Shown piece by piece: positions 22,466-32,354 of a DNA stretch of 64,000 nt (within the stretch, counting starts at the first letter, position 1; each line of letters begins with the position of its first letter). A program made the position numbers and the translations under genes. The DNA comes from Salinicola aestuarinus. Its GTDB lineage: Bacteria; Pseudomonadota; Gammaproteobacteria; Pseudomonadales; Halomonadaceae. The notes under the pieces are model-generated. The model was not told the origin of the DNA. It did no database searches and was given only the letters and a program-made list of their open reading frames with translations. Location: assembly GCF_003206645.1 (NCBI RefSeq), contig NZ_PZJP01000008.1, forward strand, positions 355,512-419,511, in the 5' to 3' direction.

Positions 22466-25084
<2,619 letters not shown>

Positions 25085-25088
<4 letters not shown>

Positions 25089-25663
25089 CCCAGCTATCGA
25101 TTGAAACGTCACCCGACGCGCTGGCGGACCCGCCGACCAGGCCAGTACGACCGGGCGTTAGTTCCTCCTCGATGGCACGCGACTACTTCGTGCCGCCGAG
25201 TGATGCGTGGCCGGGTGCGCTTGAGATTCGCGCCGACACGACCGGCATTACACGCATCGACTTTGTGTCACAGCGCCAATCGGCTGCGCGGCCGAGCAAA
25301 CTGACCCAGGAGTGCGCGCGTCAACTCCAGGCGTATTTTGCCGGCGAGCTCGAGCGCTTCGAACTTGCCCTGTCACCTCAGGGTACGGATTTCCAGCAAC
25401 GCGTCTGGCAAGCACTCGCCGCCATACCTTGGGGCGAGACGAAAAGCTATCGGGAACTCGCCGTTGCCATCGAACACCCGACCGCTTCACGCGCCGTGGG
25501 CATGGCCAACGCTCGCAATCCGCTACCTATAATCGTCCCTTGTCATCGTGTCATCGGCACCGATGGAACGCTGACCGGCTACGCCGGTGGGCTCGCACGC
25601 AAACGGTGGCTGCTTGAGCACGAGGGGTGGCGCGAAACACCGCACAGGGGATCGCGGCGCTGA
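25085..25663 (+). CDS. ogt: Methylated-DNA--protein-cysteine methyltransferase
   Basis: Suicide enzyme that removes methyl from O6-methylguanine. It has 192 residues with the acceptor Cys 153 in PCHRVI and the HTH region PWGETKSYRELA. The N-terminus is about 20-30 residues longer than E. coli Ogt and Pro/Ser-rich. The ATGA overlap with the Ada-AlkA gene indicates one transcription-translation unit. Confidence 0.95.
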
Positions 25664-25788
25664 ACACGTTCGCATGGCACACTCATTCACCCGAGTCGCG
25701 GCGTCCTCTAAATGGCACAGGCTCTTCCATCGGCTAGCCGATGCACGGCACCATTCACGCTATTCTCGCCACTGCCTTGGGTGCCCCC

Positions 25789-26196
25789 ATGTCGCGCGCT
25801 TTTTCCTCTCCTCCCCGCTTGCAGCTACGACTCGCTGTCGCCGGTGACGTCGCCGTTGGGCCAGGCAAGATCGCTCTGCTCGAGGCGATCGAGCGACACG
25901 GGTCGATCGCTGCCGCCTGTCGGGAGATGGGCCTCAGCTACAAGAAGGCCTGGCGACTGATCGAAACGATGAACCGGCACCTGGAGCGCCCGGTGCTGGA
26001 AACTCGCGCCGGCGGCAGCCAACGCGGCGGCGCCGTCGTCACATCTTCCGGGCAAGTGCTTGTCGCCCGGTATCGCGCGCTCACCCAGGCCGTCGCCGCG
26101 CTCCCCGAAGCCGAGCAGCTAGTAGCTCTCATGGCACTGCCCGACGCGACCGACGCGACCGACGACACGCCGACCGATGACGCGTCGTCGACCTAG
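25789..26196 (+). CDS. modE: ModE-type transcriptional regulator lacking the molybdate-binding domain
   Basis: A 135-residue protein with the ModE winged HTH (GPGKIALLEAIERHGSIAAACREMGLSYKKAWRLI in short overlapping segments from about residue 22 to 58) and an Asp/Thr-rich tail. Full ModE has two C-terminal Mop domains that bind molybdate; they are absent. An upstream ATG at 25741 is possible but adds atypical residues. It lies about 100 bases before modA and likely represses modABC through the palindrome at 26269-26292. How it senses molybdate is not clear from this chain. Confidence 0.85.
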   Translation: MSRAFSSPPRLQLRLAVAGDVAVGPGKIALLEAIERHGSIAAACREMGLSYKKAWRLIETMNRHLERPVLETRAGGSQRGGAVVTSSGQVLVARYRALTQAVAALPEAEQLVALMALPDATDATDDTPTDDASST

Positions 26197-26234
26197 GCCC
26201 GTGCCGGCTAACCATTACATCGCTCGATCTCTCC

Positions 26235-26263
26235 TCGACCGAGACTCAAGCGATGACTATAGT
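26235..26263 (+). promoter_or_regulatory. Predicted sigma-70 promoter of modABC
   Basis: TCGACC, 17-base spacer, TATAGT (4 of 6 and 5 of 6 matches). The expected start site near 26270 falls at the left edge of the ModE-type operator. Confidence 0.65.
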
Positions 26264-26268
26264 GGTCC

Positions 26269-26292
26269 CGCTATTTCCACCCATACATAGCG
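26269..26292. promoter_or_regulatory. ModE-type operator at the modA start site
   Basis: CGCTATTTC-N6-TACATAGCG. The two arms resemble the CGNTATATA half-site known for ModE, and a perfect 8-bp repeat CCCGCTAT / ATAGCGGG frames it (26267-26294). It lies between the -10 and the modA ATG, a place where binding blocks transcription. Confidence 0.75.
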
Positions 26293-26301
26293 GGAATTCG
26301 T

Positions 26302-27090
26302 ATGTCATCTCTTCGCTACTCGCCTGCGTCATTGTTAGCACTCACCTTGACCGTTCTTGTCACGCCACTGAACGCGCAGGCAGGCGAAACGGTCCAGGTC
26401 TATGCCGCGGCCTCGCTGACGGATGCGATGGACAGCGTCATCGCCCGCTACGAATCGAATCATGACGTCGACATCGTGCCGGTCTACGCCTCCTCGTCGA
26501 CGCTGGCCCGTCAGATCGCCAATGGCGCCCCGGCAGCGATCTACCTCTCCGCCAACGAGCAATGGATGAACTGGCTGGCCGAACAGGACACGCCCATTCA
26601 GCAGCGGATGGATCTTCTCGACAATCGTCTGGTGCTGATCGCCCCAGACGACAGCGATTTGAGCACCACATCGCTCGACGGCAGCCAGCAGTTGGTCTCG
26701 CTACTCAAAGATGGCGAGCGCCTGTCGGTGGGCGATACCGATCACGTACCCGCCGGCATTTACGCCAGGCAGGCACTGACATCGCTTGACCAATGGACGG
26801 CATTGGCGCCTCGATTGGCCAACGGCGACAACGTCCGCGCCGCCATGGCCCTGGTCGAACGCCACGAGGCGCCGCTGGGTATCGTCTATCAGACGGATGC
26901 AGCAGCCAGCGACGGGGTGAAGACACTGGGCGTCTTTCCTGATGCCACCCACGATCCCATCACTTACCCCATGGCGATCGTCAGCGCTCAACCCAGTGAG
27001 GCGACTCAGGCGTTTCGGGCGTGGCTGGCTGGCGATACGGCGCGTTCACTCTTTTCAGGCTACGGCTTTACGCCGGCCAGCGCCGACTGA
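26302..27090 (+). CDS. modA: Molybdate ABC transporter, periplasmic binding protein
   Basis: Captures molybdate or tungstate in the periplasm and delivers it to ModBC. It has 262 residues with a Sec signal peptide probably cut after AQA at about residue 27. The mature chain begins with VQVYAAASLTDAMD, and YASSSTLARQI contains the oxyanion-binding serines. GVKTLGVFPDATHDPITYPM is a ModA C-terminal feature. modB follows after five bases. Confidence 0.95.
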   Translation: MSSLRYSPASLLALTLTVLVTPLNAQAGETVQVYAAASLTDAMDSVIARYESNHDVDIVPVYASSSTLARQIANGAPAAIYLSANEQWMNWLAEQDTPIQQRMDLLDNRLVLIAPDDSDLSTTSLDGSQQLVSLLKDGERLSVGDTDHVPAGIYARQALTSLDQWTALAPRLANGDNVRAAMALVERHEAPLGIVYQTDAAASDGVKTLGVFPDATHDPITYPMAIVSAQPSEATQAFRAWLAGDTARSLFSGYGFTPASAD

Positions 27091-27095
27091 CTGTG

Positions 27096-27791
27096 ATGCT
27101 TTCCGAAGCCGAATGGCAGGCGATAGCACTCAGCCTGAAGATCGCCGGCACCGCCGTTGGCTGGATCGCGGTTCCCGGCATCGCCCTGGCCTGGCTGCTG
27201 GCACGGCGCGAGTTCCGCGGCAAGGCATTGCTCGATGGCCTGATACACCTCCCATTAGTTCTACCGCCGGTGGTGGTCGGTTACTTGCTGCTGCTCTCAC
27301 TGGGGCGTAGTGGCTGGCTTGGGCAATGGCTTTTCGAGACATTCGGCGTGTCGCTGCCGTTTACCTGGCAGGGCGCGGCGGTCGCGGGCGGCGTCATGGC
27401 GTTTCCTCTACTGGTGCGAGCGGTGCGACTCTCGCTGGAGGCGGTCGACCCCAAACTCGAGGCGGCGGCGAGTACGCTCGGCGCCAATCGGCTGCGTGTG
27501 CTCTTCACGATTACGCTACCGCTGGCCATCCCCGGGCTGCTAACCGGTACCGTGCTGGCATTTGCCCGCGCGCTTTCGGAGTTTGGTGCGACCATCACCT
27601 TTGCCTCCAACATTCCCGGAGCGACACGCACTTTGCCGCTGGCGCTCTACACCCTGATTCAGACGCCGGGTAAAGAGAACGCCGCCGCCAGGCTCTGCGT
27701 CATCGCGGTTGCCATCGCCATGGTCTCGCTGATCGCTTCCGAATGGCTGGCTCGCCGTGCCCGGTTGCGTCTGCAGGAGCGAGACCTGTGA
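27096..27791 (+). CDS. modB: Molybdate ABC transporter, permease
   Basis: Inner-membrane channel subunit of the molybdate importer. It has 231 residues (E. coli 229) and five to six membrane segments, with the EAA-loop region LEAAASTLGANRLRVLFTITLP that docks ModC. ATG 27096 lies five bases after modA; a GTG is immediately before it. It overlaps modC by four bases (GTGA). Confidence 0.95.
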   Translation: MLSEAEWQAIALSLKIAGTAVGWIAVPGIALAWLLARREFRGKALLDGLIHLPLVLPPVVVGYLLLLSLGRSGWLGQWLFETFGVSLPFTWQGAAVAGGVMAFPLLVRAVRLSLEAVDPKLEAAASTLGANRLRVLFTITLPLAIPGLLTGTVLAFARALSEFGATITFASNIPGATRTLPLALYTLIQTPGKENAAARLCVIAVAIAMVSLIASEWLARRARLRLQERDL

Positions 27792-28927
27792 ATCGACGAG
27801 ACGCTTGCGGCGGCGTTCCGGCGGCGACGACACCCAATGCGCTCTCCTGCGAGGTTCGCAAGCGCCAAGGCGCCTTTTCGCTGAACGTCTCTCTCGACGT
27901 GCCGGCCAGTGGCGTCACTGCGCTCTTCGGTCCTTCCGGTAGCGGCAAGACCACCCTGCTGCGCTTGATGGCCGGGCTCGATCGCCCGGATAGCGGTCGT
28001 GTGACACTGGGGGAACGCGTTCTGGCCGATACGGCGCGCGGCGTCCATCTGCCGATTCACCACCGGGGGCTCGGCGTGGTGTTTCAGGAAGCCCGGCTGT
28101 TTCCCCATTACCGCGTCCGAAGCAACCTGACCTACGGCATGCCGCGCGATGGCCGTTCAAAATTCGACGACCTCGTCGCACTGCTCGGTATCCAGCACCT
28201 TCTCGATCGCATGCCCGGCATGCTATCCGGCGGCGAGGCACGACGAGTGGCGATCGGGCGCGCCCTGCTTACCGGCCCGCGGCTGCTGCTGATGGATGAG
28301 CCTCTCACCGGTCTCGATGGCGAGCGAAAAGGAGAGCTGCTTCGTTATCTGGTACGACTCACGCGGGAAATCGACATCCCGGTGGTCTACGTCAGCCACG
28401 ACCCAGCCGAGATCACCGCGATCGCCGATCACCTGGCGGTTCTGGAAGACGGCCAAGTCGCCGCCTACGGCGAGCTGGACGCACTCATGCTAAGGCTGGA
28501 CCTGACGCAGCGCCTCGGCGGATTCGATGCCGCCACGCGCCTGACAGGCAAGGTGATGGCTCATGACCCGCATTATGCGTTGACCGATGTCGGATTGGCT
28601 GACGGTCAGCGACTGCGCGTGCCGATGCTCGACCTCTCACCGTCAAGCCCCGTGCGCCTTCGTGTTGGGGTCCGGGACGTCGCAATAGCGCTACGCATGC
28701 CAACGAACACCAGCTATCGCAATGGCTTGTGGGCCACTGTTGAAGCGATGATGCCCTCGGATCACGAACCGAGCGCCATGGAGTTGCGACTCGTTATCGG
28801 CACGCAGCGACTCCGCGCCCGTCTAACGCGACAGGCCTGTGACGAACTTCAGATCATTCCTGGTAAAAAAGTCGTGGCGTTGATCCGTAGTGTTTCATTT
28901 GATGACACCCTCGAGCCTATCAATTAG
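27788..28927 (+). CDS. modC: Molybdate ABC transporter, ATPase
   Basis: ATP-driving subunit of ModABC. From GTG 27788 it has 379 residues, about 25 more than typical ModC, mostly an N-terminal extension. It carries Walker A GPSGSGKTT, signature LSGGEARRVAIGRALL, Walker B LLLMDEPL and the switch His in YVSHD. The C-terminal part (about 300-379) fits a TOBE/Mop domain, which could bind molybdate and regulate transport. The GTG start overlaps the modB stop. Confidence 0.94.
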   Translation: MNRRDACGGVPAATTPNALSCEVRKRQGAFSLNVSLDVPASGVTALFGPSGSGKTTLLRLMAGLDRPDSGRVTLGERVLADTARGVHLPIHHRGLGVVFQEARLFPHYRVRSNLTYGMPRDGRSKFDDLVALLGIQHLLDRMPGMLSGGEARRVAIGRALLTGPRLLLMDEPLTGLDGERKGELLRYLVRLTREIDIPVVYVSHDPAEITAIADHLAVLEDGQVAAYGELDALMLRLDLTQRLGGFDAATRLTGKVMAHDPHYALTDVGLADGQRLRVPMLDLSPSSPVRLRVGVRDVAIALRMPTNTSYRNGLWATVEAMMPSDHEPSAMELRLVIGTQRLRARLTRQACDELQIIPGKKVVALIRSVSFDDTLEPIN

Positions 28928-29542
28928 TTATCTAGTTCAACTGAATTAATACGGCTTAAAAGTAACGTTTTGTAGTATTTGAGGGTTTAAGTCATTTCTT
29001 ATTAGCGAGCTTGATTGGTAAGCGTTTACAATACGCACCAGGAGCTCGGCTAGCAGGGAAGCGGCCTCATGGAGGAGGCACCGTAGCGCAGGATCTTCGT
29101 CAGGGATGGCGTCCAGGGAGAGACGATCGCACGCGAAAAGGATGTCGCCGGACTTTCAGGAAGAGGCTCGACGGGATGTCGAGTGCGAAGGGAATCGCAT
29201 CCGCATTCGCGCGGATAATCGCTTGAACCGCCACTATCGCCCCGCTCGCCAATCTATCCCCCCATCGACTTCTTGTGTGATTCCGTCATTGCAGCCTGTT
29301 CATTACTTGGCCTTGCATTGAATCGATCAGTGCGCGTTGTTGTTATTCATGACACTTAACGGGGCAGGCCAGGTGCCATTTCCTGCGGCAAGCGGCTGCC
29401 TTCACCCAAACTTATTCTCCCATTATACTCGGGCCTGACCTCAAGCCGCCTGCGGCAATCGCTAAAGAGGTCCCAGAACCACCTCTGGATTCATTCGACA
29501 GTGAGCGGCGCCCTTTGGCCGTCGCCTACCAGCCGAGCGCGC
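28928..29542. other. Intergenic region modC-guaD containing an sRNA candidate
   Basis: 615 bases. 28928-29030 is AT-rich and ends in a -10-like TACAAT (29027-29032) without a good -35. 29038-29216 is the GGA-rich hairpin RNA described separately. 29217-29542 contains no credible gene; I see only short inverted repeats and no T-run terminator for the RNA. guaD has no clear promoter that I can point to. Confidence 0.6.
29038..29216 (+). ncRNA. Candidate CsrB/RsmZ-type sRNA (CsrA/RsmA sponge)
   Basis: Thirteen GGA triplets occur in about 175 bases on this strand, roughly four times what composition predicts. Many sit in hairpin loops: GCCTC-[ATGGAG]-GAGGC (29064-29079), CGTC-[AGGGAT]-GGCG (29098-29111), GCGA-[AAAGGATG]-TCGC (29133-29148), CTCGAC-[GGGAT]-GTCGAG (29167-29183) and TGCGA-[AGGGAA]-TCGCA (29184-29199). 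A/GGA-bearing loops are the CsrA-binding signature of CsrB, CsrC, RsmY and RsmZ. A TACAAT box at 29027-29032 places the 5' end near CCAGGAG. The missing -35 fits an activated promoter, but I found no convincing GacA/UvrY site and no T-run terminator, so the 3' end is a guess. Confidence 0.72.
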
Positions 29543-30853
29543 ATGACTACCCAGCAAACCTTACTCCGGGGACCGCTTTTCACCTGCCTCGATGACCCGG
29601 GTGAAGAGATCATCCCTGCCCCCGGCAGCACGCGCTATCTCGACGACGGCGCCATCTGGATCGTCGATGGACGGATTCACGCCGTAGAGCCTTTCGCGGT
29701 ACTCGCCGATCACCTTCCGGCCGAGATCGATATCGTCGACTATCGCGACAAGCTGATGATGCCCGGCTTCATCGATAGCCACGTGCATTACGTGCAGCTC
29801 GACGTCATGGCCTCCTATGGTCGCCAACTTCTCGACTGGCTCAACGACTACACTTTCCCCGCCGAATGCCGATTCGCCGACGAGGCGTTTGCCAGCGCCG
29901 CCGCCGAGCGCTTCCTGAATGAACTGTTACGTGTCGGGACGACCACTGCACAGGTCTTCTGTTCGTCGCACCCCATTTCAGTAGACCGGTTCTTCGAGGC
30001 CAGTGCGCGCCGCCGCCTGCGCATGATCGCAGGCAAGGTACTGATGGATCGCAATGCGCCGGAAACCTTGATCGATGACACCCTTGGCAGCATTCGCGAC
30101 AGTGAACGGCTGATTGCGGATTGGCACGGGCGAGATCGACTGTCTTACACGCTGACTCCGCGCTTTGCACCGACGTCGACTCGCGAGCAGCTCGACGCCG
30201 TTGGCGGCGTTCTGCGCGATGCGCCGGATCTCCATCTCCAGACACATTTGTCGGAGAATCGCGGTGAGATTGCCTGGGTGGGAGAGCTCTTTCCCGAGCG
30301 ACGGGACTACCTGGACGTTTACGAGCATTACGGGCTCGTGGGGCCGAGAAGCACCTTCGCTCATGGCGTTCACCTCGATGCCAACCAACGCCGTCGACTG
30401 GCCGAGCGTGGCGCCAATGTCGCTTTCTGCCCGACGTCGAACCTATTTCTCGGCAGTGGCCTGATGGATCGCATCGCATGCCGCGAAGCGGGACTGGCGA
30501 CCTCGCTGGCCAGCGATATCGGCGCCGGCACCTCGCTGTCGGTTTTTGGGACCTTGCAGGGTGCCTATCAGGTCGGTGCCCTTCTGGGTCAAGCGCTGAC
30601 CGGCTGGCAGGGGTTTTACCAGGCAACGCTGGGTAATGCGCGGGCGCTGCATCTGGAGGCTAACATCGGCACGTTGCAAGCCGGTCACGAAGCCGACATC
30701 GCAGTGCTCGACCCGAATGCCACGCCGCTGCTGTCGCGCCGGCTTTCTCAGGCCGAGACACTGAGTGAAAGGCTCTTCGCCCTGATGATGCTGAGCGATG
30801 ACCGCACCATCAGCGCCACCTGGGCCGACGGGCGGCAAGTCCATACCCGCTGA
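29543..30853 (+). CDS. guaD: Guanine deaminase
   Basis: Zinc amidohydrolase converting guanine to xanthine. From ATG 29543 it has 436 residues (E. coli 439). The metal motif MPGFIDSHVHYVQ follows the N-terminal beta domain, QTHLSEN and FAHGVHLD supply further His ligands, and SDIGAGTSLS carries the catalytic Asp near the C-terminal third. The Shine-Dalgarno sequence is weak, and an in-frame alternative start at 29501 exists. No other purine-catabolism gene is near. It is convergent with manC. Confidence 0.94.
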   Translation: MTTQQTLLRGPLFTCLDDPGEEIIPAPGSTRYLDDGAIWIVDGRIHAVEPFAVLADHLPAEIDIVDYRDKLMMPGFIDSHVHYVQLDVMASYGRQLLDWLNDYTFPAECRFADEAFASAAAERFLNELLRVGTTTAQVFCSSHPISVDRFFEASARRRLRMIAGKVLMDRNAPETLIDDTLGSIRDSERLIADWHGRDRLSYTLTPRFAPTSTREQLDAVGGVLRDAPDLHLQTHLSENRGEIAWVGELFPERRDYLDVYEHYGLVGPRSTFAHGVHLDANQRRRLAERGANVAFCPTSNLFLGSGLMDRIACREAGLATSLASDIGAGTSLSVFGTLQGAYQVGALLGQALTGWQGFYQATLGNARALHLEANIGTLQAGHEADIAVLDPNATPLLSRRLSQAETLSERLFALMMLSDDRTISATWADGRQVHTR

Positions 30854-30950: not shown

Positions 30951-32354
30951 TCAGTCGCGGTGATACACGTCGTCGTAACGCTCGATATCGTCTTCTCCCA
31001 GATAACTCCCGCTTTGCACTTCGATCAGCTCGAGCTGAATCTTGCCCGGGTTTTCGAGACGATGAATCACGCCCAACGGGATGTAGGTCGACTGATTTTC
31101 TTCGAGCAGGAAGGTGTCATCTCCGCGGGTGACGCGTGCCGTGCCCCGCACGACGATCCAGTGTTCGGCCCGATGAAAGTGGCGCTGCAGGGAAAGCCGG
31201 GCGCCGGGTGCCACGCAGATCTGCTTCACCTGGTAGCGGTCAGCGGCATGAATGCCGTCGTAACTGCCCCAAGGACGGTGGACGCGGCGATGCTGATTCC
31301 ATTCCGGGCGGCCTACACGCTTGAGCGATTCCGCCAGCGTCTTGACGGCCTGCGCTGACGCTCGCGGCGCCACCATGACCGCATCCGCCGTCTCGACGAT
31401 CAGCAGATTTCTCACGCCAACCGCAGCCACTAATCGGCTCTCCGCGTAGATCAGGCTGTCGCCAACGTCCTCGATCATCACATCGCCGTCGAGCGCATTG
31501 CCATCGGGGTCCTTGTCCGCGATCTCCCATAGCGATTCCCAGGAGCCGACGTCCGACCATCCCGCATCCAGGGCCACGACACTGGCATCCGGTGTGCTCT
31601 CCATCACGGCGTAGTCGATCGATTCCGATTCGCAGCGCGCAAAGGCCTCAGCGTCAAGCCGCAGGAAGTCCAGATCCGATGCTCGTCCTCTCCAGGCAGC
31701 CGATACCGCAGCGAGCATTGCCGGTCTTTCGATTGAAAGCGTTTCGAGATAGCGATCCGCGCGCATCATGAACATGCCGCTATTCCAGAGATGTCGCCCC
31801 CCTGCGAAATAGTCGGCCGCCACGGCGGGCGCCGGTTTTTCGATGAAGCGAATGACGGGCACCGCAGCGTCGGCCGCCGGCTCTTCAGCCTCGATGTAAC
31901 CGTAGCCGGTCTCGGCGCGGGTAGGATGGATCCCAAAGGTCACAAGCTTGCCTGTCTGAGCCGCGATCCGCGCGGGTTCCAGCGCGGCCAGCAGTGCTTC
32001 TGGCTGGGCGATGGCGTGATCTGCCGGCAGCACTAGCAGCATCGCCTCTTCGTCTCTCTCCAGAGCGGCGAGCGCGGCAACCGCGATCGCTGGCGCAGTA
32101 TTGCGCATCATCGGCTCGAGTACGATCTCGGCGCGCTGGTTGACCGCCCGGAGCTGCTCCGCGACCAGAAACCGATGAGACTCCTGACAAATCACGATGG
32201 GATCGCCGGTGGCAGCCGGCTTCAGGCGCGAGAGCGTCTCGACGAGCATGCTCTGCTCTCCCACGACCGGTAAAAACTGTTTGGGATAGCTCGCACGCGA
32301 AACAGGCCACAGTCGCGTGCCGGCACCCCCTGCCAGTATCACGGGTATCAGCAT
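30951..32354 (-). CDS. manC: Mannose-1-phosphate guanylyltransferase / mannose-6-phosphate isomerase
   Basis: Makes GDP-mannose for polysaccharide or glycan synthesis. It has 467 residues: an N-terminal nucleotidyltransferase with LAGGAGTRLWPVSR (about 8-21) and FIEKPAPAVA, and a C-terminal cupin-type isomerase domain (about 345-467) with HRAEHWIVVRGTA. It belongs to the ManC/CpsB/AlgA group. It stands alone, without manB or a polysaccharide cluster, so its product pathway cannot be inferred from the neighbours. A 9-bp hairpin lies in the presumed leader. Confidence 0.95.
   Translation of the reverse strand: MLIPVILAGGAGTRLWPVSRASYPKQFLPVVGEQSMLVETLSRLKPAATGDPIVICQESHRFLVAEQLRAVNQRAEIVLEPMMRNTAPAIAVAALAALERDEEAMLLVLPADHAIAQPEALLAALEPARIAAQTGKLVTFGIHPTRAETGYGYIEAEEPAADAAVPVIRFIEKPAPAVAADYFAGGRHLWNSGMFMMRADRYLETLSIERPAMLAAVSAAWRGRASDLDFLRLDAEAFARCESESIDYAVMESTPDASVVALDAGWSDVGSWESLWEIADKDPDGNALDGDVMIEDVGDSLIYAESRLVAAVGVRNLLIVETADAVMVAPRASAQAVKTLAESLKRVGRPEWNQHRRVHRPWGSYDGIHAADRYQVKQICVAPGARLSLQRHFHRAEHWIVVRGTARVTRGDDTFLLEENQSTYIPLGVIHRLENPGKIQLELIEVQSGSYLGEDDIERYDDVYHRD

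What the first reader, a model, noticed from the sequence alone, without database searches (positions are those of the whole stretch)
29038..29216. Unannotated CsrB/RsmZ-type sRNA candidate between modC and guaD
Thirteen GGA motifs in about 175 bases against roughly three expected, with at least five in the loops of short hairpins, two of them perfect (29167-29183 and 29184-29199). This is the hallmark of RNAs that titrate CsrA/RsmA. A TACAAT box without a -35 lies just upstream, fitting an activated promoter. Length and density lie between RsmZ and CsrB. It would tie carbon storage, motility or biofilm control to a GacA-like system in this lineage. Gaps: no clear terminator and no convincing TGTAAG-N6-CTTACA site.
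Basis: partly seen in the sequence, partly recalled or inferred. Interest (0 to 1): 0.85.

Follow-up and report, generated by a model that had tools for sequence, protein, structure and literature searches.

The report
New CsrA-sponge RNA family in Salinicola
The sequence very probably encodes a small RNA that soaks up the global regulator CsrA; it sits beside the molybdate transporter gene modC in all 18 Salinicola genomes compared, which also carry further RNAs of the same kind, and it supplies a missing piece of this control circuit in salt-loving bacteria.

Summary
The plus strand has 13 GGA motifs at 29038-29216; 2 of 2000 dinucleotide shuffles reach that. A covariance model finds the locus in 18 of 18 genomes of the genus, which is Salinicola, next to modC in all 18. 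Five of nine conserved GGA sites are present in 18 of 18; three GGA-loop hairpins are intact in 18 of 18, one with a compensated change. The genome encodes CsrA, a GacA/UvrY-like regulator and a GacS/BarA-like kinase and at least two other Csr-type RNAs. No Rfam family is reached at its gathering score, nor by the sister RNAs tested. Best reading: a new CsrA-sequestering sRNA. Transcription and CsrA binding are untested.

The parts
29038..29203 (+). Csr/Rsm-type sRNA (conserved part; 5' end inferred from the -10 box, 3' end from where conservation stops)
   Evidence: CM R1 hit in 18 of 18 Salinicola genomes, 7 of which built the model; 9 conserved GGA sites; alignment A4
28961..28976 (+). conserved upstream element AGTAAC-GTTT-TGTAGT (genus form YGTAWC-N4-TGTAAC), candidate activator (GacA-type) site centred near -70
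   Evidence: best match in each of 18 sequences starts 71-76 nt upstream of the model start, 9-12 of 12 positions (9 here); alignment A5
29002..29007 (+). conserved TTAGCG in the -35 region, unlike TTGACA
   Evidence: alignment A5, where relatives have TTAGC or TTCGC; coordinates; no canonical promoter found here
29027..29032 (+). -10 box TACAAT
   Evidence: TA at the first two places and T at the last are invariant in 18; TAGAAT, TACACT, TAAACT, TATGAT in relatives
29133..29148 (+). hairpin HG, GCGA-AAAGGATG-TCGC, GGA in the loop
   Evidence: stem found in 18 of 18 (stem and loop length chosen per sequence); GCGA/TCGC here and in the closest relative against GCAA/TTGC in the other 16: compensated change
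29167..29183 (+). hairpin HI, CTCGAC-GGGAT-GTCGAG, GGA in the loop
   Evidence: stem intact in 18 of 18, G-C to G-U in 8, C-G to U-G in 1
29184..29199 (+). hairpin HJ, TGCGA-AGGGAA-TCGCA, GGA in the loop
   Evidence: 4-bp core GCGA/TCGC invariant in 18 of 18
29174..29202 (+). possible alternative long hairpin GGANG...CWTCC, exclusive with HI and HJ
   Evidence: outer stem kept in 16 of 18, with a double change in the window sequence (GGATG/CATCC), broken in 2; the inner stem has a mismatch in the window sequence; preferred by RNAalifold on 7 sequences
29204..29330 (+). C-rich, G-poor stretch after the RNA: candidate Rho-dependent termination zone
   Evidence: C exceeds G in the 120 nt downstream in 18 of 18 genomes; best C minus G over 78 nt is 19 here, which the best of 150 neighbouring windows reaches at 3.5% of + positions
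27743..28927 (+). modC, constant upstream neighbour (context)
   Evidence: TIGR02142 391 bits; upstream on the same strand in 18 of 18
29501..30853 (+). guaD, guanine deaminase (context; downstream in 2 of 18, a convergent TetR/RutR-like gene in 16 of 18)
   Evidence: TIGR02967 531 bits; synteny; Pfam PF08362 for one of the TetR genes

Best explanation
29038-29203 is the gene of a small non-coding RNA of about 165 nt that sequesters CsrA. Its 13 GGA motifs (7-13 in relatives), several held in the loops of short hairpins, present CsrA dimers with high-affinity sites and so relieve CsrA's repression of target mRNAs. Transcription starts from a promoter with a -10 box and no standard -35, probably switched on by a GacS/GacA (BarA/UvrY)-type system through the conserved element near -70, and probably ends by Rho in the C-rich stretch that follows. 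It acts together with at least two other Csr-type RNAs of the same genome. Shown here: the sequence, conservation, hairpins, synteny, and the presence of CsrA, a GacA-like protein, a GacS-like kinase and sister RNA genes. Inferred: transcription, CsrA binding, GacA control, Rho termination and the target genes.
For: GGA excess. Model hit in 18 of 18 congeners, one locus each at E<=0.01, always after modC. Five GGA sites in 18 of 18, two in 17 of 18; GGA columns conserved above all 164 circular shifts. GGs of GGA less paired than other Gs, pooled 0.45 against 0.31, and in 17 of 18 sequences (0.38 for GGs of GGA in shuffles). Hairpins HG, HI and HJ in 18 of 18, with one compensated change and wobble changes. 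CsrA; UvrY/SirA/GacA family is the best model for the regulator next to uvrC; hybrid HisKA-HATPase-receiver-Hpt kinase is the best BarA match. PrrB_RsmZ is the only Rfam hit listed at this place, and this place its only hit at E<=1 in the genome. Sister RNAs with the same motif and strong terminators, some with a related upstream element.
Against: No expression data. The Rfam score is half the gathering score; 8 of 14 control genomes also match RF00166 at E<=1, and over the family scan the modC-linked RNA itself reached E<=0.01 in only 1 of 18 Salinicola genomes. GGA excess over shuffles is weak in some relatives: at most 5 of 100 shuffles in 15 of 18, but 6, 10 and 15 of 100 in three. Fold energy is no lower than shuffles. 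RNAalifold covariation terms are near zero (+0.33 and -0.02), so structural support rests mainly on one compensated change. The 5'-most hairpin is intact in 13 of 18 and absent in the window sequence. One anchored reading frame stays open in 13 of 18. No intrinsic terminator, no palindromic GacA box.
Confidence: 0.9

Rival explanations
1. The RNA is a 3'-UTR product of modC, made by read-through and processing, and sequesters CsrA only as part of, or cut from, the modABC transcript (as suggested for RsmW and PA4570 in Pseudomonas aeruginosa).
For: Always downstream of modC on the same strand; no terminator-like site between modC and the RNA in the scan of 28900-29540; RsmW precedent (PMC4950607, passages read).
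Against: Own conserved -10 box and a conserved upstream element in 18 of 18 at near-constant distance; a 110-nt spacer, AT-rich by eye, between modC and the RNA.
Confidence: 0.12
2. A short protein is encoded here (ORFs 29011-29226 or 29106-29321, 71 aa each).
For: Two overlapping ORFs are listed; each of 18 sequences has at least one frame open over its 157-190 nt, and one frame anchored at hairpin HI is open in 13 of 18.
Against: No anchored frame is open in all 18 (6, 6 and 13 of 18); lengths differ by non-multiples of 3; conservation concentrates on GGA loops and stems.
Confidence: 0.03
3. The conserved stretch is a cis-acting regulatory leader or DNA site for the neighbouring purine or molybdate genes, not a CsrA sponge.
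For: Constant linkage to modC and to guaD or a RutR-like TetR regulator.
Against: The downstream gene is on the opposite strand in 16 of 18, so the RNA cannot be its leader; GGA-loop architecture is shared with unlinked RNAs elsewhere in the genome.
Confidence: 0.04
4. Chance GGA clustering in a purine-rich spacer.
For: 12 GGAs also occur in a coding stretch on the other strand of the window; composition explains about 7 of the 13.
Against: Conservation of GGA sites and hairpins in 18 of 18 genomes.
Confidence: 0.01

Closest known systems
PrrB/RsmZ RNA (Rfam RF00166), Pseudomonas
   Same: Size class, GGA repeats in hairpin loops, only Rfam family listed here (21.9 bits, E 0.0067 over 641 bp); genome with one CsrA and a GacA-like regulator
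   Different: Far below the gathering score of 44; no intrinsic terminator; different neighbours (modC; in Pseudomonas rsmZ is organised with fdxA, PMC9788540 passages)
CsrB/CsrC, Escherichia coli (RF00018/RF00084)
   Same: Many GGA motifs for titrating CsrA (22 and 14 in E. coli, PMC11882849 passages)
   Different: Shorter, 13 GGAs; no CsrB or CsrC match listed at this locus; the CsrB-sized RNA of this genome is another locus (L199, 18 GGAs)
Pf1-Pf3 of Pseudoalteromonas fuliginea and CsrR1/CsrR2 of Alcanivorax dieselolei
   Same: Lineage-specific Csr RNAs recognised with the help of GGA repeats (passages read)
   Different: Pf2 and Pf3 were picked partly by intrinsic terminators, which the Salinicola RNA lacks; no sequence relation was tested
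Second-class Salinicola Csr RNAs (L138-L166, L198)
   Same: Same genus, GGA-loop hairpins; a related upstream element before part of them, mostly in opposite orientation
   Different: Strong intrinsic terminators, different sequence, two or three copies at E<1e-6 in 11 of 18 genomes

Membership tests
CsrA-sequestering sRNA (functional class) | Many GGA motifs, several in hairpin loops, conserved in relatives | tested here: met
   13 GGAs; 9 conserved sites, 5 in 18 of 18; three GGA-loop hairpins in 18 of 18
CsrA-sequestering sRNA (functional class) | CsrA/RsmA protein in the same genome | tested here: met
   One CsrA, 93.5 bits
CsrA-sequestering sRNA (functional class) | Non-coding | tested here: inconclusive
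   No anchored frame is open in all 18 sequences, but one is open in 13 of 18
CsrA-sequestering sRNA (functional class) | Transcribed as an independent RNA | not testable with these tools
   Conserved -10 and upstream element but no expression data
CsrA-sequestering sRNA (functional class) | Binds and antagonises CsrA | not testable with these tools
   Needs EMSA and genetics
Rfam RF00166 PrrB_RsmZ | Score at or above the curated gathering score (44 bits) | tested here: not met
   21.9 bits; 0 of 275 genomes of the taxonomic family reach it
Rfam RF00018 CsrB, RF00084 CsrC, RF00195 RsmY and other Csr/Rsm models | Score at or above the gathering score | tested here: not met
   No match in the gathering scan of all 4227 families; none listed at E<=10 on the region, though one lower-scoring overlapping match of the same clan was left out by the tool
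GacA-controlled Rsm sRNAs of Pseudomonas | 18-bp palindromic UAS TGTAAG-N6-CTTACA upstream (consensus from PMC4950607) | tested here: not met
   Best match in 28700-29060 is 9 of 12 at 28986-29003; by eye not kept beyond the closest relative
GacA-controlled Rsm sRNAs of Pseudomonas | GacS/GacA-type system present | tested here: met
   UvrY/SirA/GacA model best at 260 bits though under its cut-off of 280, beside uvrC and an ORF recognised by eye as pgsA; hybrid kinase with Hpt is best of 35 BarA-model matches, 186.9 bits against a cut-off of 890
GacA-controlled Rsm sRNAs of Pseudomonas | Activated by GacA | not testable with these tools
   Needs a gacA deletion strain
CsrB/RsmZ-type RNAs | Rho-independent terminator at the 3' end | tested here: not met
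   Only a chance-level hairpin 110 nt downstream in the window (1 found, 0.7 expected); terminator-like sites within 300 nt downstream in 2 of 18 sequences, the window among them

The most novel reading that the evidence does not exclude
In Salinicola the set of Csr RNAs is switched by a GacA-type regulator that reads a direct repeat of its half-site (YGTAWC-N4-TGTAAC, 10-bp period), usable in either orientation, in place of the 18-bp palindrome known from Pseudomonas; the modC-linked RNA is in addition a Rho-terminated member of the class whose 3' GGA hairpins compete with a longer alternative hairpin.
Probability: 0.25. Interest if true: 0.55.

Novelty: new member of a known kind. Interest (0 to 1): 0.42.

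Why it matters
GacS/GacA has been tied to quorum sensing, exopolysaccharide and biofilm in Halomonas anticariensis, but a table in a 2020 paper enters 'Unknown' for that species where other rows name the Csr/Rsm RNAs (PMC7366521, passages read; the column heading itself was not seen). This work gives a concrete, genus-wide RNA family and at least two further Csr-type RNAs in the same genome, so the missing step can be tested in this group of halophiles. It also shows that current Rfam models miss the Csr RNAs of this lineage at their gathering scores and supplies alignments from which models can be made. If the direct-repeat element proves to be the GacA site, it would widen the known grammar of GacA recognition.

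Tried and rejected
Rfam gathering scan of the window gave only a tRNA. Rfam on the first seven loci at E<=1 gave RF00166 only for the window and its closest relative (2 of 7) and weak nematode snoRNA hits. Blastn found only 7 of 38 genomes of the 'relatives' set, own genome included; the covariance model was needed to reach 18 of 18.

A scan of named genomes with ModC returned 80 loci, among them other ABC transporters of Salinicola but not its modC; it served only to name the genus through five Salinicola genomes. The Kushneria sinocarnis and Larsenimonas rhizosphaerae genomes gave no R1 match.

RF00166 over 275 genomes of the family: 24 at E<=0.01, 0 over the cut-off, and 2 of 14 control genomes too. 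Of its 12 loci read (L119-L130), L125, L127 and L129 (0, 2 and 4 GGAs) look like chance and L128 (4 GGAs in the match, more upstream) is uncertain.

Models R1 and R3 over the same 275 genomes: R1 matched 19 (18 Salinicola plus one partial hit at E 0.008); R3 matched 40 at E<=0.1 (18 Salinicola plus 22 others, best 27.4 bits). Of the 12 non-Salinicola R3 loci read, 8 are GGA-rich (L186, L187, L189-L193, L197; 6-11 GGAs) and look like other Csr RNAs; 4 (L188, L194, L195, L196; 2-3 GGAs) look like chance. None of the 12 shows a modC ortholog within its 1.5-kb flanks (only L194 has a 26% ABC-ATPase match).

A fold-energy test was uninformative. A GacA palindrome was looked for and rejected. My first check for a conserved reading frame compared frames by index; repeated with frames anchored at a shared hairpin it shows one frame open in 13 of 18, so I raised the small-protein rival from 0.02 to 0.03 and marked 'non-coding' as inconclusive.

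L167, one of 30 second-class loci fetched, has 4 GGA and 6 TCC, was judged a false hit and left out of the upstream-element test, to which L199 was added (29 plus 1 = 30 regions). There 9 of 30 regions are reached by at most 2 of 200 shuffles and 14 of 30 by at most 10 of 200; the other 16, which include both second-class regions of the window's own genome (L155 38 of 200, L199 16 of 200), are not distinguishable from shuffles one by one.

Full report
What is there. Between modC (27743-28927) and guaD (29501-30853) the plus strand carries 13 GGA motifs in 29038-29216 and the other strand 2. A dinucleotide shuffle of the same stretch gives 7.15 on average; 2 of 2000 shuffles reach 13. It is the densest 175-nt stretch of the + strand of the window (mean 1.99). 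A coding stretch on the other strand reaches 12, so density alone proves nothing.

Which organism. Five named Salinicola genomes (S. corii, S. acroporae, S. halophyticus, S. avicenniae, Salinicola sp. EAC73) give the model hit at the same coordinates as five genomes of the window's genus, so the genus is Salinicola.

Conservation. Blastn found related sequence in 7 of 38 genomes, own included. A covariance model built from these seven found one locus in each of 18 of 18 genomes of the genus, E from 6e-60 to 4e-23; seven of the 18 built the model, so eleven are independent. In all 18 the RNA lies downstream of modC on the same strand, about 110-270 nt after the matched end of ModC; further downstream lies guaD in 2 and a convergent TetR gene in 16, of the YcdC/RutR type by Pfam in the one tested. 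Nine GGA sites are conserved: five in 18 of 18, two in 17, one in 13, one in 11. GGA columns have mean conservation 0.949 against 0.803 elsewhere; among columns where G dominates the values are 0.960 and 0.889; none of 164 circular shifts reaches the observed value. GGA excess over each sequence's own shuffles is at most 5 of 100 in 15 of 18 and 6, 10 and 15 of 100 in three.

Coding? Each of the 18 sequences has at least one frame open over its 157-190 nt. Anchored at the shared hairpin HI, the three frames are open in 6, 6 and 13 of 18. No frame is open in all, but the third keeps a small-protein reading barely alive; the conserved features fit an RNA better.

Structure. Three hairpins with GGA in the loop, HG (29133-29148), HI (29167-29183) and HJ (29184-29199), are found in 18 of 18 (for HG the script chose stem and loop length per sequence). 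HG is GCGA/UCGC in the window and its closest relative and GCAA/UUGC in the other 16, a compensated change. HI has G-C to G-U in eight and C-G to U-G in one. GGs of GGA motifs are unpaired with pooled mean probability 0.45 against 0.31 for other Gs, higher in 17 of 18 sequences, and 0.38 for GGs of GGA in shuffles. Against: total fold energy is not lower than in shuffles (z -1.98 to +1.19); RNAalifold's covariation terms are near zero; HG is not in the minimum-energy fold of the window sequence; the 5' half varies, and the 5' hairpin GGC-AGGAN-GCC is intact in 13 of 18 and absent from the window sequence. A longer alternative hairpin (GGANG...CWUCC) that excludes HI and HJ keeps its outer stem in 16 of 18, with a double change in the window sequence.

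Partners. The genome has one CsrA. A response regulator lies directly upstream of uvrC, followed by an ORF that I recognised by eye as pgsA; its best NCBIfam model is the UvrY/SirA/GacA family, E 1.4e-77, 260 bits against a cut-off of 280. The best of 35 matches to the BarA kinase model (186.9 bits, cut-off 890) is an 857-aa HisKA-HATPase-receiver-Hpt protein whose ORF starts about 0.8 kb beyond the window's right end, beside a cysM-like ORF recognised by eye.

Sister RNAs. An RF00166 scan of 275 genomes of the family gave 24 with E<=0.01 and none over the cut-off; 2 of 14 unrelated control genomes also matched, and among 18 Salinicola genomes it found the modC-linked RNA only in the window's own, so this scan is weak by itself. 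It pointed to a second RNA in another Salinicola (L130). A model of that class, built from six loci of six genomes, matches all 18 Salinicola genomes at E<=1.1e-6, with two or three copies at E<1e-6 in 11 of 18. In the window's own genome this gives a 160-nt RNA with 7 GGAs and a strong intrinsic terminator (C1:334008-334167, E 1.1e-6) and, by weak hits (E 0.0075 and 0.44) read by eye, a CsrB-sized stretch with 18 GGAs (C31:105067-105400). So the finding is one of at least three Csr-type RNA genes in the genome. Rfam does not reach such RNAs either: the own-genome L198 has no match at E<=1, L199 has CsrB at 16.2 of 71 bits (an equal-scoring hit lies elsewhere in that locus, so this is no evidence), and two loci of other Salinicola have PrrB_RsmZ at 25.8 of 44 and RsmY at 22.9 and 20.8 of 57. 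Missing the Rfam threshold therefore says little about function in this lineage.

The two gaps. (a) Terminator: none at the RNA's end. In 18 of 18 genomes the 120 nt after the RNA are C-rich and G-poor (C 0.30-0.48, G 0.16-0.23), opposite to the RNA itself; the best 78-nt C minus G within 150 nt reaches 20 or more in 14 of 18, the window's own value being 19. At random + positions of the 64 kb the best of 150 such windows reaches 20 at 2.2% and 19 at 3.5%. The relatives are not independent, and part of the windows may reach into the convergent gene. This suggests Rho-dependent termination; it is inference. (b) Activator site: the Pseudomonas GacA box TGTAAG-N6-CTTACA (PMC4950607, passages, with sites at -75 and -196 for rsmY and rsmZ) has no convincing match. 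Instead YGTAWC-N4-TGTAAC has its best match in each of the 18 sequences at 71-76 nt upstream of the model start, with 9 to 12 of 12 positions (9 in the window; the pattern was drawn from these same sequences). A weight matrix from the 18 was run on 30 upstream regions of other Csr RNAs: the best match starts 57 nt upstream on the opposite strand in 13 of 30 and 58 nt upstream on the same strand in 6 of 30; 9 of 30 are reached by at most 2 of 200 shuffles and 14 of 30 by at most 10 of 200. The other 16, the window genome's own two among them (38 and 16 of 200), are not significant one by one, and the regions are related to each other. The half-site resembles the GacA half-site TGTAAG. I take a shared activator as likely and GacA as the best candidate.

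What is known. In the held library (open-licence PMC papers) a search for Salinicola with CsrA found two papers, seen as listings, each naming CsrA once. Searches for Salinicola with small-RNA terms (10 of 9,652 listed) and for Halomonas with CsrA, CsrB, GacA, RsmZ and related terms (20 of 145, 4 of 4 and 15 of 317 listed) showed no title or abstract describing such RNAs in this family. A 2026 preprint models CsrA targets in Halomonas hydrothermalis and does not contain the term CsrB (PMC12889724, passages). A 2020 paper's table has 'Unknown' for Halomonas anticariensis where other rows name the RNAs (PMC7366521, passages). Lineage-specific Csr RNAs have been described in Pseudoalteromonas and Alcanivorax (PMC11882849, PMC9788540, passages).

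Verdict. A real, conserved CsrA-sponge-type RNA family, undescribed in the searches named: a new member of a known kind. It works like RsmZ or CsrB by all that sequence can show; it is not a member of any Rfam Csr/Rsm family by curated score. Experimental proof of transcription and CsrA binding is missing.

Noticed in passing
L199:1568-1901 (own genome C31:105067-105400): CsrB-sized GGA-rich stretch with 18 GGAs about 110 nt upstream of a tRNA gene; Rfam CsrB only 16.2 bits. Possibly the main CsrB of this species.
   Followed up: partly
L198:1509-1668 minus (own genome C1:334008-334167), and L138-L166 in other Salinicola: Second class of Csr RNAs with strong intrinsic terminators, two or three copies at E<1e-6 in 11 of 18 Salinicola genomes.
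   Followed up: partly
L133, L134, L139, about 12-25 nt before the RNA model start: Promoters of some second-class RNAs hold TTGAT-N4-ATCAA, like an FNR/ANR box (motif recalled), near the likely -35 region; possible oxygen control of Csr RNAs. Seen by eye only.
   Followed up: no
L186, L187, L190, L192, L197: Another GGA-rich RNA family followed by an intrinsic terminator, in five genomes of genus code g25 of the same family; resembles a Csr RNA.
   Followed up: no
L119, L120, L128: PrrB_RsmZ-like hits of other genera lie beside ORFs that look by eye like ParC and MutS, or RpoS, reminiscent of the rpoS-rsmZ neighbourhood recalled from Pseudomonas.
   Followed up: no
own genome C32:420351-422924 (L200:865-3438), about 0.8 kb right of the window end: GacS/BarA-like hybrid kinase beside a cysM-like ORF; Pfam reports HisKA, HATPase_c, Response_reg and Hpt but no HAMP domain.
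   Followed up: partly
window 23343-25663: Two overlapping ORFs that look by eye like an Ada/AlkA-type fusion followed by an O6-alkylguanine methyltransferase, just before what looks like a modE-modA-modB-modC cluster (25741-28927); only modC was tested.
   Followed up: no
window 31439-31711, minus strand: 12 GGAs in 175 nt inside a coding sequence; shows that GGA density alone is a weak signal.
   Followed up: partly
window 29174-29202: Alternative hairpin exclusive with the two 3' GGA hairpins, outer stem kept in 16 of 18 genomes; could be a switch or a processing site.
   Followed up: partly
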